Source of the DNA: Gemmatimonadota bacterium | GTDB taxonomy: Bacteria; Gemmatimonadota; Gemmatimonadetes; Palauibacterales; KS3-K002 | NCBI GenBank assembly: GCA_020344015.1 | Contig: CP070812.1 | Span: 4,676,978 to 4,740,977 of the forward strand | Length of the DNA stretch: 64,000 nucleotides | Reading direction: 5' to 3' | In this document: piece by piece, positions 14,749-35,345 of the stretch | Layout: the number at the start of each line of letters is the position of its first letter | Position numbering within the stretch: position 1 is the stretch's first letter | Program-made: the position numbers and the translations under genes | The notes under the pieces: model-generated | Told to the model about the DNA's origin: nothing | The model's input: the letters and a program-made list of their open reading frames with translations, nothing else | Database searches by the model: none

Positions 14749-15438
14749 ATGTTCAAGCGATTTCGCGAGAAGATCGAGCGCGCTCTCGAGCGGCGCGAAG
14801 CGGAGCGCCCGCTGAGCCGGGATGAGGTCGACCGCCTGCTACATGGCATGCGGGAGGAGTTGATCGAGATGAAGGCCCGCATCCCACGGCTGGAGCGCCA
14901 GGCGATGGACCTGGATAAGCGTGCCGCTCACCAGGTGCAGCGTGCCGAGTTGGCATACAACAAGGCGCGTGAAGCGCAGGGGTCGGGCGATATGGACGAG
15001 GCGCAGATGGCGTCGGAAGCGGCGCGGGATGCGCTGAGTCACGCCGAGGATCTGCGCCGGCAGGCCGACGAGTCACGTGGCGAGGCGGAGCGACTGAAGG
15101 GCGAGTACGTCGCGAAGATGGACCAGCTGAAGGAGGCGGAGCGGAACCGCGACGTCTTGATCGCCCGCTCACGCCGCGCCACTACGGCGCGCAAGTTGGA
15201 TGACATGCTGCGGGGCCCGGACAGCGGCCTGGGTCGGTTCGAACGGGCCGAGGATGATATCGAGGCGGCTGAGGATCTAGCGGCTGCCGAGCGCGAGGTG
15301 AGTGAGGCCTTGGGCGAACGTCCGCCTGCGAAGCAGATCGAGACCGATTACGAGCTGCGGCAGCTGGAGGCGGCGAAGGAAGCGGACGAGATCGAGGAGC
15401 GGCTGAAAGAGCTCAAGCGTCAGATGGAGGAAGAGTAG
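14749..15438 (+). CDS. Coiled-coil protein, possibly PspA/IM30-like
   Basis: The 229-residue product is almost entirely charged alpha helix (Glu, Arg, Ala-rich heptads) without signal peptide or membrane segment. Its order of helices (a short basic amphipathic start, a long hairpin-like coiled coil with an AELAYNKAREA segment, then a C-terminal helix) recalls PspA/IM30 membrane-stress proteins, but I see no diagnostic motif. It stands alone, divergent from the metal-resistance operon and closed by a strong terminator. ATG 14749 is the only sensible start; the upstream extension of the frame would overlap the arsR gene. Confidence 0.65.
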   Translation: MFKRFREKIERALERREAERPLSRDEVDRLLHGMREELIEMKARIPRLERQAMDLDKRAAHQVQRAELAYNKAREAQGSGDMDEAQMASEAARDALSHAEDLRRQADESRGEAERLKGEYVAKMDQLKEAERNRDVLIARSRRATTARKLDDMLRGPDSGLGRFERAEDDIEAAEDLAAAEREVSEALGERPPAKQIETDYELRQLEAAKEADEIEERLKELKRQMEEE

Positions 15439-15477
15439 GGGATTCGGGGATTCTGGGATTCGGGGAGTTAGGGAAGA
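15438..15477 (+). repeat. Degenerate 8-bp tandem repeats
   Basis: Five successive octamers: GGGGATTC, GGGGATTC, TGGGATTC, GGGGAGTT, AGGGAAGA. They begin on the last base of the coiled-coil gene's stop codon and run up to the terminator. Confidence 0.75.
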
Positions 15478-15484
15478 ATATTAG

Positions 15485-15526
15485 ACGGTGAACATCGAAG
15501 TATGAGGTTCGATGTTCACCGTTTTT
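15485..15526 (+). terminator. Strong Rho-independent terminator
   Basis: ACGGTGAACATCGAA (15485-15499) pairs perfectly with TTCGATGTTCACCGT (15508-15522) over 15 bp with an 8-base loop, followed by TTTTT. It ends the coiled-coil gene; the converging symporter gene ends 17 bases further on. Confidence 0.85.
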
Positions 15527-23936: not shown

Positions 23937-23951
23937 TTGTCCGAGTCCTGC

Positions 23952-24065
23952 TCGTAATCGTTTCTCGTTCTCGTTAACGTTTGTCGTTGTCGTTACCGGC
24001 GGCCAGAATGCGGCGCCGAGAACACGATTACGATCGCGACAATGATCACGATAGCGATAACGAGA
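23952..24065. repeat. Two inverted arrays of degenerate 6-bp repeats
   Basis: The left arm (23952-23995) consists of TCGTTA-type hexamers: TCGTAA, TCGTTT, TCGTTC, TCGTTA, ACGTTT, TCGTTG, TCGTTA. The right arm (24024-24065) has the complementary sense: ACGATT, ACGATC, GCGACA, ATGATC, ACGATA, GCGATA, ACGAGA. The arms could pair as a long imperfect stem in the gap between two converging genes. Confidence 0.75.
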
Positions 24066-24649: not shown

Positions 24650-24740
24650 GGCTTTCCTTTGGCGTTCTGTGGGTCCCGGTGTTCGCGGGGCGAATATTTC
24701 GACTCGCCCCCTTCCCGTCAAGCGGACGGTGGTCGGTGCG

Positions 24741-24831
24741 CCGGTGACCGGTGGCCGGTAGGTCCGGGCCGCGATCTATCGGCGCCGGGGCAGCAAGGTC
24801 ACAGGCCACTGGCTACCGGCTATCGGTTACC
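24741..24831. repeat. Inverted pair of degenerate 7-bp repeats
   Basis: CCGGTGA, CCGGTGG, CCGGTAG (24741-24761) face their relatives in opposite sense at 24806-24831, where the minus strand reads CCGATAG, CCGGTAG, CCAGTGG. The arms could form an imperfect 19-20-bp stem just downstream of the M24 peptidase gene. Confidence 0.65.
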
Positions 24832-33812: not shown

Positions 33813-34073
33813 TTACAGCCGGCCGCCCGGTCCGTCGATCGGGCAGTACACGTTCAGGTGACCGCAGCGGCTGCAATGCCAGCCGACCCACTCGGGCGGC
33901 AGGGCGGCATCGCTACGGCGCAGCGACCGGAAGCGCAGATGGTGGCCGCTGCGGCCGAGGAACACGTGACAGCCCGGCAGCTGGCAACGAACCCGGTGAC
34001 CCGGCGTGATCTCCTGCGGGTAGAGCCAGTCGCGGAGCGCAACAACCGTCTGGCCAAGGCGATCCCTTATCAT
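33813..34073 (-). CDS. Small putative zinc-ribbon protein
   Basis: The 86-residue product has two Cys groups, CQLPGC and CSRCGHLNVYC, plus several His and an RFRSLRR basic patch, suggesting a zinc ribbon that might bind nucleic acid. It lacks a signal peptide. No Shine-Dalgarno is clear before the ATG. It is upstream of the S9 peptidase on the same strand with an 81-base gap. Could be a true small gene or chance; composition of the Cys pairs favours the former. Confidence 0.45.
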   Translation of the reverse strand: MIRDRLGQTVVALRDWLYPQEITPGHRVRCQLPGCHVFLGRSGHHLRFRSLRRSDAALPPEWVGWHCSRCGHLNVYCPIDGPGGRL

Positions 34074-34146
34074 CGCGTCGTAAATGTAGGGTAGCCACCG
34101 GGTTCGGGAAAGGCCGAATATTACCCGAAGGCGGGGAAAAAGCTCG

Positions 34147-34263
34147 AAATTCGACAGTCGACGTTCGACGATCGACTTCCGAGTTTAGCTGCGATGATCG
34201 ATGTTCGATGTTCGGTGTTCGATGCTCGGCGTTCGATCGTCGACGGTGGATGGTCGACGTTCG
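34147..34263. repeat. Degenerate 7-bp tandem array downstream of the four-helix-bundle gene
   Basis: On the plus strand about 16 heptamers of form NNNNTCG: AAATTCG, ACAGTCG, ACGTTCG, ACGATCG, ACTTCCG, AGTTTAG, then a 5-base interruption (CTGCG), then ATGATCG, ATGTTCG, ATGTTCG, GTGTTCG, ATGCTCG, GCGTTCG, ATCGTCG, ACGGTGG, ATGGTCG, ACGTTCG. It ends 3 bases before the gene's stop codon. Confidence 0.85.
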
Positions 34264-34266
34264 CTG

Positions 34267-34659
34267 CTACTGGGATTTCAGCTTTTCGTTACGACTAGCT
34301 GTGCGGATACTCGTGTAGATGATGGCGACGGCGCGGTCGGTGTCGCTGATCGATTCATCGATCTCGGATGGTTCGCCGATGCCCAGCCGCTGCAGGTAGC
34401 GTAGCCAGGTCATCGTCTCTCGTAGCTCCTTGAGGCAGAGGCGAAGCTTGTACACGAAGTCCTTCCGGGATTCGGCGGCGCTGGCCTCGGCGTGGAGTGG
34501 GGCGGGAGCCGTTCCGCAGCGCAGCAACTGCCCCGCCACGTGCTTGGCCACCCTTGTCGAAGGTAGGCTATCGCAAACCGTACTTATGCGAACTGCGAGG
34601 TCGATGAGGCGATCCTGTAGATCGTACTCCGTCGTCGGACAGTCGGGGGGCGTTGCCAT
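34267..34659 (-). CDS. Four-helix-bundle protein (23S rRNA intervening-sequence/Avd-like family)
   Basis: The roughly 130-residue protein carries the family pattern: YDLQDRLIDLAVRI, then LLRCGTAPAPLHAEASAAESRKDFVYKL split over helices two and three, then KELRETMTWL. The fold is shared with IVS-encoded proteins in 23S rRNA genes and with Avd of diversity-generating retroelements. Function is unknown. GGAGG lies 5 bases before ATG 34659. The gene is framed on both sides by degenerate heptamer arrays, so it looks like a discrete cassette. No reverse transcriptase or template repeat is nearby and it is not in an rRNA gene. Confidence 0.85.
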   Translation of the reverse strand: MATPPDCPTTEYDLQDRLIDLAVRISTVCDSLPSTRVAKHVAGQLLRCGTAPAPLHAEASAAESRKDFVYKLRLCLKELRETMTWLRYLQRLGIGEPSEIDESISDTDRAVAIIYTSIRTASRNEKLKSQ

Positions 34660-34675
34660 CGAAACCTCCGGGTTG

Positions 34676-34757
34676 AACATCGAAAGTCGAGAGTCAGCCG
34701 TCGTACATCGTCTGGAAACTCGGACGTCGAACACCGGCTGTCGGCTGTCGAATGTCC
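34676..34757. repeat. Degenerate 7-bp tandem array upstream of the four-helix-bundle gene
   Basis: Plus-strand heptamers: AACATCG, AAAGTCG, AGAGTCA, GCCGTCG, TACATCG, a 5-base interruption (TCTGG), then AAACTCG, GACGTCG, AACACCG, GCTGTCG, GCTGTCG, AATGTCC. Same NNNNTCG pattern, same sense and a similar 5-base break as the array on the other side of the gene. Confidence 0.8.
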
Positions 34758-34813: not shown

Positions 34814-35248
34814 TCACTCTCCGATGATCTTCAAGACAATCCGCTTCGGTCGGCGACCATCCCACTCACCGTAGAACACCGCCTGCCAGGGTCCCAGGTC
34901 GAGTCGCCCATCGGTCACTGGGATGATCACCTCGTGCCCAATGGTGAGGTTCCGCAGGTGTGCCGCTCCGTTGTCCTCACCGGTCCGGTTGTGCAGGTAG
35001 TCGTCGCCGCGCGCGGGGTGGGCGGTCCACGGTGCTACCGCGCCTTCCAGCCAGTCATAGATGTCCTGGTGCAGCCCCGACTCGTTGTCGTTGATGAAGA
35101 CCGACGCGGTGATGTGCATCGCACTCACGAGGCAAAGTCCCTCCTGGATTCCGCTCTTGGCCACCTCATCCTGCACCCACGGAGTGATGTGGATGATCTC
35201 TTGCTGCTTCTTCGTGTTGACCGTCCGATATTCCGTATGCGATCTCAT
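34814..35248 (-). CDS. YjbQ/UPF0047 family protein
   Basis: The 144-residue single-domain protein has the UPF0047 pattern: [43 protein letters not shown] and [13 protein letters not shown]. Members show a beta fold with conserved His and Asp residues; weak thiamine-phosphate synthase activity has been reported for YjbQ homologues, but the physiological role is not settled. AGAGGTGAT precedes the ATG. Between it and the upstream gene lies a hexamer repeat array. Confidence 0.88.
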
Positions 35249-35285: not shown

Positions 35286-35345
35286 TCGTCATCGTCATTG
35301 TTGTCGGTATCGGTATCGTTATCGTTGTCGTTGTCGTTATCGTCT
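35286..35345. repeat. Degenerate 6-bp tandem array
   Basis: Ten hexamers in perfect register: TCGTCA, TCGTCA, TTGTTG, TCGGTA, TCGGTA, TCGTTA, TCGTTG, TCGTTG, TCGTTA, TCGTCT. Same TCGTTR family as the left arm at 23952-23995. It fills the gap between the TPR protein's stop and the YjbQ start. Confidence 0.85.

What the first reader, a model, noticed from the sequence alone, without database searches (positions are those of the whole stretch)
34147..34757. Four-helix-bundle gene framed by degenerate heptamer arrays: possible unrecognised mobile or diversifying cassette
Both flanks of this 130-residue IVS/Avd-like gene are NNNNTCG heptamers in the same sense, about 16 units on one side and 11 on the other, each with a single 5-base interruption (CTGCG, TCTGG). 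The downstream array stops 3 bases from the stop codon; the upstream array stops before the ribosome site. The family is known as insertions in 23S rRNA genes and as the accessory protein Avd that binds nucleic acid in diversity-generating retroelements. Here it is outside any rRNA gene and without reverse transcriptase. Matched flanking arrays suggest the protein recognises, makes or moves with these repeats.
Basis: partly seen in the sequence, partly recalled or inferred. Interest (0 to 1): 0.8.

Follow-up and report, generated by a model that had tools for sequence, protein, structure and literature searches.

The report
Hairpin mobile element with helix-bundle gene
The small gene and its two seven-letter-repeat flanks form one insertion whose flanks are mirror images; many unrelated bacteria carry the same layout together with numerous gene-less copies, so it looks like an overlooked kind of mobile DNA and a likely source of heptamer repeats known in bacteria for decades.

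Summary
The TIGR02436/PF05635 gene (34267-34659, minus strand) lies between the two strongest period-7 stretches of the window. The arrays are inverted, not same-sense (the TCGA core is palindromic), and the two "interruptions" are mirror images. The block (about 34143-34757) is an insertion: six relatives of the same family have the flanking genes next to each other without it. The host genome carries at least 13 gene-less copies (155-186 bp) with conserved ends and a conserved hairpin. Each of its four TIGR02436 genes has arms with 3-9 gene-less relatives in a sixth of the genome. Among 80 loci of the close subfamily from many phyla, 81% of 74 testable have inverted arms (1% expected), mostly period 7. 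In 150 Gemmatimonadota, every array-positive genome carries the gene. In cyanobacterial plasmids the flanks look like the known heptamer repeats; plasmids 97-99% identical give exact empty sites, with 5-bp duplications over the upstream stop codon. The host genome has no detectable reverse transcriptase or Y1 transposase. Best reading: an IVS-like mobile element outside rRNA, with the helix-bundle protein as its own mobility or recognition factor. The mobility is well supported; the protein's chemistry is inferred.

The parts
34143..34757 (-). whole element: inverted heptamer arms with the helix-bundle gene in the loop
   Evidence: Termini match the ends of the gene-less family (GACATTCGACAGCCGACAGCC ...); absent between the same two genes in six relatives of the same family. 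Left end approximate.
34267..34659 (-). four-helix-bundle (S23/IVP, TIGR02436/PF05635) gene, 130 aa, ATG at 34659
   Evidence: AlphaFold model pLDDT 93, best PDB matches 2rld, 2gsc, then Avd 4dwl/8ub7
34665..34669 (-). GGAGG ribosome-binding site of the gene
   Evidence: sequence
34724..34757 (-). outer part of the gene-upstream arm (conserved element end GGACATTCGACAGCCGACAGCC)
34676..34708 (-). inner heptamers of the upstream arm
34194..34264 (-). inner heptamers of the gene-downstream arm
34143..34178 (-). outer heptamers of the downstream arm
34814..35248 (-). flanking gene YjbQ/UPF0047 (not part of the element; one side of the empty site)
33813..34073 (-). flanking conserved 86-aa ORF (other side of the empty site)
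   Evidence: follows YjbQ directly in G001-G005 and G007
24725..24831 (.). gene-less hairpin of another family (CCGGTGA/TCACCGG heptamers, arms like those of cassette L003) in the same window
   Evidence: third highest lag-7 score of the window; sequence

Best explanation
The feature is an autonomous copy of a small mobile element: two inverted arms of degenerate heptamers, able to fold into one long hairpin as RNA or single-stranded DNA, with a single gene, the S23/IVP four-helix-bundle protein, in the loop. Gene-less copies with the same arms spread in the same genome, as REPINs do beside a RAYT gene or MITEs beside a transposon. Shown: the architecture, its spread across phyla, insertion relative to empty sites, dispersed gene-less families, association of arrays with the gene, and purifying selection on the protein. 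Inferred: the protein, probably a pentamer like its relatives 2gsc, 2rld and Avd, binds its own arms and serves as the mobility or recognition factor. It promotes insertion into short intergenic sites, typically over the stop codon of the upstream gene, with a staggered cut that leaves about 4-5 duplicated bases. Arm length then changes by gain or loss of whole repeat units. Whether the protein cuts DNA itself, through its invariant Gln, Glu and Glu, or recruits host enzymes is not known. The 23S rRNA intervening sequences would be the special case of this element lodged in an rRNA hairpin.
For: Inverted arms: up versus reverse-complemented down, median alignment score 40 in 74 named loci of the close subfamily from many phyla, against 20 direct, 19 with another locus and 19 control; 81% exceed the 99th percentile of control. 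In 48 loci of the wider family 65% exceed it, against 0.4% of mismatched pairs. Period 7: flank lag-7 means 0.547/0.528 against 0.38 in 1518 control blocks, while lags 5, 10 and 11 stay near control. Insertion: six relatives have YjbQ and the 86-aa ORF adjacent without it. In plasmids 97.7-98.9% identical the empty site AAAAAGTAATTAAC is filled as AAAAAGTAAT-element-GTAATTAAC, a 428-bp net insertion; a second site shows duplication of TTCTA and a third of TTAG. The chance of an apparent duplication of 5 or more is 0.007 per site. One site occurs empty, with the gene, and as a gene-less hairpin. Cassette ORF 99.7% identical where flanks are 82-94%. Gene-less copies: 13 of 155-186 bp, alignable end to end with the most conserved positions at the termini; hairpin pairs 88% formed against 21-43% when slid. 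Each of the four cassettes of the genome has its own gene-less relatives. Association: all 14 array-positive Gemmatimonadota genomes other than the seed carry the gene (81 of 149 do; P 1e-4, relatedness ignored). Lag-7 arrays per Mb: 31 and 10 in G000 and G001, against 0 in G003 and G016 without the gene. Protein: dN/dS 0.12-0.30; three residues invariant in 107 divergent sequences.
Against: No experiment shows that the protein moves or binds anything, and the family has no known catalytic activity. About 19% of close and 35% of wider family loci lack detectable inverted arms; some have arms of period 8-10 or without arrays. Target duplications are clear at only two sites (a third is suggestive) and cannot be seen at the more diverged ones or in the window. 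Fewer than half (19 of 41) of the sampled array sites in G000/G001 score as hairpins above control, so many are degenerate or single-armed. Sharing of a site by near-identical cassettes could come from homologous recombination rather than insertion.
Confidence: 0.66

Rival explanations
1. The cassette is mobile, but the helix-bundle gene is a passenger or helper, and an unlinked host or element-encoded enzyme (transposase, integrase, repair or replication machinery) does the moving.
For: The protein is only 130 residues with a fold (S23, Avd) not known to cut DNA; gene-less copies move without encoding anything; a 5-bp duplication is typical of DNA transposases.
Against: No common partner is known: Y1 transposases and RVT_1 reverse transcriptases are not detected in the host genome and Y1 is found in only 44 of 150 genomes. 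The association of arrays is with this gene across loci and genomes, each cassette matches its own gene-less family, and the protein is under purifying selection.
Confidence: 0.2
2. No mobility by the cassette: heptamer arrays arise by slippage at transcription-terminator palindromes and are kept alike by template switching; the protein is a host factor that binds these hairpins (terminator or RNA-stability protein) and its gene sits among them for regulation.
For: Gene-less hairpins sit where relatives have plain terminators (G003, G005 at the H+-PPase gap); arrays lie just after stop codons; slippage was proposed for heptamers in the literature quoted by PMC4692102.
Against: Exact insertion of arms plus gene into nearly identical plasmids, end-to-end alignable copies at unrelated places with the termini most conserved, and cassettes younger than their flanks are not explained by slippage.
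Confidence: 0.1
3. It is a stripped diversity-generating retroelement: an Avd-like protein with variable repeats rewritten by a reverse transcriptase in trans.
For: Fold matches Avd (4dwl, 8ub7).
Against: No RVT_1 hit in the host genome; only 24 of 150 Gemmatimonadota have one, while 82 have the gene. The NCBIfam match is TIGR02436 only. No template/variable repeat pair was seen, and array variation is dispersed.
Confidence: 0.02

Closest known systems
23S rRNA intervening sequences (IVS) with an S23p ORF (Coxiella, Leptospira; PMC4990558)
   Same: Same protein family in the loop of a stem formed by terminal inverted repeats; an insertion called selfish, with a mobility role for the ORF proposed in 1993 (cited in PMC4990558).
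   Different: Here outside any rRNA gene, with arms made of degenerate heptamers, many gene-less copies, target duplications and hosts in many phyla.
REPIN/RAYT (TnpA-REP) systems
   Same: A gene with its own flanking palindromic repeats and a cloud of gene-less intergenic copies per family.
   Different: RAYT is a Y1 HUH transposase. The protein here is an unrelated helix bundle, and the host genome has no detectable Y1 transposase.
Cyanobacterial STRR heptamers and heptameric G-rich repeats of Xanthomonas and Nostoc (PMC4692102), TAACTGA repeats (PMC4679880)
   Same: Intergenic degenerate heptamers, often in inverted pairs, close to the stop codon of the upstream gene (Rehm et al. report 70 inverted pairs in X. 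campestris ATCC 33913). Heptamers of this look flank S23 genes in Nostoc and Calothrix plasmids, and the solved S23 protein 2gsc (XCC0516) comes from X. campestris (that it is the same strain is my own knowledge).
   Different: Those papers name no associated gene or origin; the link to the helix-bundle gene is made here.
Avd of diversity-generating retroelements
   Same: Four-helix-bundle fold (Foldseek prob 1.00, TM 0.7-0.8).
   Different: No reverse transcriptase, template or variable repeat; only 17-18% identity.
MITEs
   Same: Short non-coding inverted-repeat copies with flanking duplications.
   Different: The related full-length copy carries no recognisable transposase.

Membership tests
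S23/IVP four-helix-bundle family (TIGR02436/PF05635) | Profile match above curated cut-off | tested here: met
   65 bits (cut-off 24) and 41.5 (33.8)
S23/IVP four-helix-bundle family (TIGR02436/PF05635) | Four-helix-bundle fold as in 2gsc/2rld | tested here: met
23S rRNA IVS element | ORF of the S23p family between terminal inverted repeats | tested here: met
23S rRNA IVS element | Lies inside a 23S rRNA gene helix | tested here: not met
   Between YjbQ and an 86-aa ORF; empty in relatives
23S rRNA IVS element | Stem cut by RNase III | not testable with these tools
   -
Diversity-generating retroelement | Reverse transcriptase of the DGR clade in the genome | tested here: not met
   0 RVT_1 matches in G000; genome about 92% complete
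Diversity-generating retroelement | Template/variable repeat pair | not tested
   No dedicated search; none noticed near the gene
REPIN/RAYT | Y1 (HUH) transposase encoded with the repeats | tested here: not met
   PF01797: 0 in G000
REPIN/RAYT | Gene-less palindromic copies matching the repeats flanking the gene | tested here: met
DNA transposon / MITE | Terminal inverted repeats and target-site duplication | tested here: met
   Inverted arms; 5-bp duplications GTAAT and TTCTA at two plasmid sites; not resolvable at the window site
DNA transposon | Recognisable transposase in the element | tested here: not met
   Only PF05635 in the element
Cyanobacterial STRR | Degenerate intergenic tandem heptamers | tested here: met
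   Flanks of S23 genes in Nostoc/Calothrix plasmids; chromosomal STRRs not tested

The most novel reading that the evidence does not exclude
A new class of transposable element in which a 130-residue four-helix-bundle protein, with no relation to any known transposase or reverse transcriptase, is the recombinase or the obligate mobility factor. It recognises hairpins of its own heptamers and inserts at stop codons; its gene-less offspring are the source of the heptamer repeats (STRR, GGGAATC, TAACTGA and others) over-represented across bacteria, and 23S rRNA intervening sequences are one branch of it.
Probability: 0.45. Interest if true: 0.95.

Novelty: new variant of a known kind. Interest (0 to 1): 0.86.

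Why it matters
Heptamer repeats have been known in cyanobacteria for decades (cited in PMC4692102) and are over-represented in many bacterial genomes, and S23/IVP proteins have been an orphan family with solved structures and no function. If the two are parts of one mobile element, both puzzles become testable together: the repeats get an origin, the protein gets a substrate, and the old suggestion that rRNA intervening sequences are mobile gets a non-rRNA system with empty sites to work with. A mobility protein without a known catalytic domain would also be of mechanistic interest.

Tried and rejected
Reverse transcriptase (PF00078) and Y1 transposase (PF01797) as the obvious engines: absent from the host genome. 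RNA folding energy of array sites against random windows: not informative in this GC-rich genome; alignment of arms was used instead. Search for the family in phage records: no match. Same-sense (direct) arrays as the rule: direct scores are at background in most loci, although a few (L083, L323) do have direct arrays. RNA versus DNA hairpin: G-U-compatible changes slightly outnumber A-C changes in the 13 hairpins (41 against 26, p 0.04; counted by hand, test), too weak to decide; RNAalifold's covariation term is about zero. The second-phylum association test agrees (4 of 4 array-positive genomes have the gene) but is too small to count alone. Chromosomes of Xanthomonas and Nostoc could not be reached with the tools left. 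Literature searches found no paper linking the family to repeats; subscription journals and preprints are not held.

Full report
What is in the window. The ORF at 34267-34659 (minus strand, 130 aa) belongs to the S23/IVP four-helix-bundle family (PF05635, TIGR02436). Its AlphaFold model (pLDDT 93) matches 2rld and 2gsc best and Avd next. The two highest lag-7 self-match scores in the 64 kb are the two flanks of this gene. Aligned as reverse complements they match along their length (score 62; independent score 38 against 22 direct), including the two 'interruptions', which are mirrored copies of CCGAGTTTAGCTGCG.

It is an insertion. In six relatives of the same family (G001-G005, G007) YjbQ is followed at once by the 86-aa ORF (MIRDRL...HLNVYCPI); only this genome has the element between them. 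A DNA search with one gene-less copy finds some 13-15 dispersed places in the 4.8-Mb genome, including both arms of the window element. Thirteen gene-less copies are 155-186 bp, align end to end, and are most conserved at their termini (GACATTCGACAGCCGACAGCCG ... CGGCTGTCGGCTGTTGAATGTC). Their pairing forms one long hairpin: 88% of cells paired, against 21-43% when one arm is slid by 1-3 columns, and the covariation score exceeds all shuffles. The tool warns that a structure derived from the alignment favours itself, so this is support, not proof.

More than one family in the genome. The genome has four TIGR02436 genes, each with its own arms: GGAATCCG, a 55-bp inverted repeat, CCGGTAG, and TCGACAG. 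In a 0.8-Mb sample the arms of the four have 9, 3, 7 and 4 gene-less relatives; samples of G003, G016 and G046, which lack the gene, have 1, 0 and 0. Lag-7 arrays per Mb: G000 31, G001 10, G003 0, G016 0. G046 has 15, but equally at all lags, that is, low complexity.

It is general. Eighty named loci of the same subfamily from Planctomycetota, Verrucomicrobiota, Bacteroidota, Desulfobacterota, Chloroflexota and others have period-7 flanks on both sides (means 0.547 and 0.528 against 0.38 in 1518 control blocks). Their flanks match each other in inverted orientation (81% above the 99th percentile of control) and not those of other loci. The unit differs from locus to locus (GAATRTC, GATTGAY, AAAATGC, GTCCAAC, GGAATCCG and so on), but the two arms of one locus agree. 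In the wider family of Gemmatimonadota 65% of 48 loci have inverted arms, against 0.4% of mismatched pairs, with periods 7, 8, 9 or 10. The arm upstream of the gene is purine-rich (0.61 against 0.43). Among 150 Gemmatimonadota genomes, every one with TCGA- or AGCT-type period-7 arrays carries the gene (15 of 15, P 1e-4 without the seed and without correction for relatedness). Desulfobacterales and kin agree, 4 of 4.

Link to known heptamers. In the plasmid collection nearly all hits of the family are cyanobacterial. Their S23 genes are flanked by inverted heptamers: GGGAGTA, GGGTGTA, GGTGACA, GGGAACA, AGTCAGA. Cyanobacteria are where heptamer STRRs were first described, and Rehm et al. (PMC4692102) report 186 GGGAATC arrays with 70 inverted pairs in X. 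campestris ATCC 33913, close to the stop codon of the upstream gene, without an explanation of origin. The solved S23 protein 2gsc (XCC0516) comes from X. campestris. Neither that paper nor the TAACTGA paper (PMC4679880) mentions S23 or helix-bundle genes.

Exact empty sites. Site 1 (type IV secretion operon): Trichormus variabilis and Scytonema are filled; Nostoc linckia, Tolypothrix and N. carneum are empty; flanks 97.7-98.9% identical; net insertion 428 and 414 bp; GTAAT duplicated. Site 6: TTCTA duplicated. Site 4 (ribonucleotide reductase genes): TTAG. All three duplications cover the stop codon of the upstream gene. By simulation an apparent duplication of 5 or more has a chance of 0.007 per site. 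Site 2 exists empty, with the gene, and as a gene-less hairpin. At sites 2 and 6 the cassette ORF is 99.7% identical while flanks are 82-94%, so the cassette is younger than its surroundings. At a cas6-cas4 spacing, Anabaena sp. 90 has the cassette and a 98.7%-identical Dolichospermum plasmid does not, although that spacing has diverged otherwise.

The protein is used. dN/dS is 0.12 (two plasmid sites), 0.19 (G000 against G001) and 0.30 (window against G005). In 107 sequences only three residues are invariant, Gln42, Glu56 and Glu79 (L001 numbering), with Arg45 at 97%. These could be an active site or a buried polar network; nothing here decides it.

How it most likely works. The element is an arm-gene-arm unit that can fold on itself. 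Its protein most likely binds the arms, as the related Avd binds nucleic acid, and brings about insertion with a short stagger in intergenic DNA at stop codons; gene-less copies are moved in trans. No RVT_1 or Y1 transposase was found in the host genome, so neither a retroelement nor a REPIN/RAYT mechanism fits, within HMM sensitivity and 92% completeness. The chemistry is inferred, not shown.

Novelty. The nearest known kind is the 23S rRNA intervening sequence: same protein family and the same stem-ORF-stem layout (PMC4990558). It differs in place, heptamer arms, gene-less families and target duplications. I file it as a new variant of that kind; if the protein is shown to be the recombinase it becomes a new class of mobile element.

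Noticed in passing
window 15435-15520: Directly after a TAG stop codon: GGGGATTC-type octamers followed by a GAACATCGAAG/TTCGATGTTC hairpin; looks like further gene-less elements.
   Followed up: partly
window 35286-35343 and 23951-23995: Period-6 arrays (TCGTTA / TCGTTN) in intergenic DNA; G004 has a period-6 inverted hairpin (L189) at an orthologous gap that holds a heptamer hairpin in G000.
   Followed up: no
L154, L184, L186, L188 (H+-PPase / YchF GTPase gap): The same gap holds unrelated heptamer hairpins in G000 and G004 and plain terminator hairpins in G003 and G005, as if elements prefer or replace terminators.
   Followed up: partly
L143 and L011: The orthologous gap between a DMT transporter and an antiporter holds a gene-less hairpin in G000 and a different helix-bundle cassette in G001.
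   Followed up: partly
L323, L326 (plasmids of Pseudanabaena and Anabaena sp. 90): Helix-bundle cassettes with heptamer arms lie between cas6 and cas4 of type I-D CRISPR operons in two different cyanobacteria.
   Followed up: partly
G175, G091, G107, G151: Genomes with 20-63 exact period-7 arrays of one core (TCGA or, in the backwards control, AGCT); all carry several TIGR02436 genes.
   Followed up: no
G374:C1:3084233-3086626: Four TIGR02436 matches with stop codons within 2.4 kb, apparently a tandem cluster of decayed copies.
   Followed up: no
L002: The second gene of the host genome has a near-perfect inverted repeat of about 55 bp as arms, with little heptamer structure; similar in L026, L027, L121.
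   Followed up: no
L083, L105: Bacteroidales and Melioribacteraceae loci where the whole array hairpin is itself repeated in tandem downstream of the gene.
   Followed up: no
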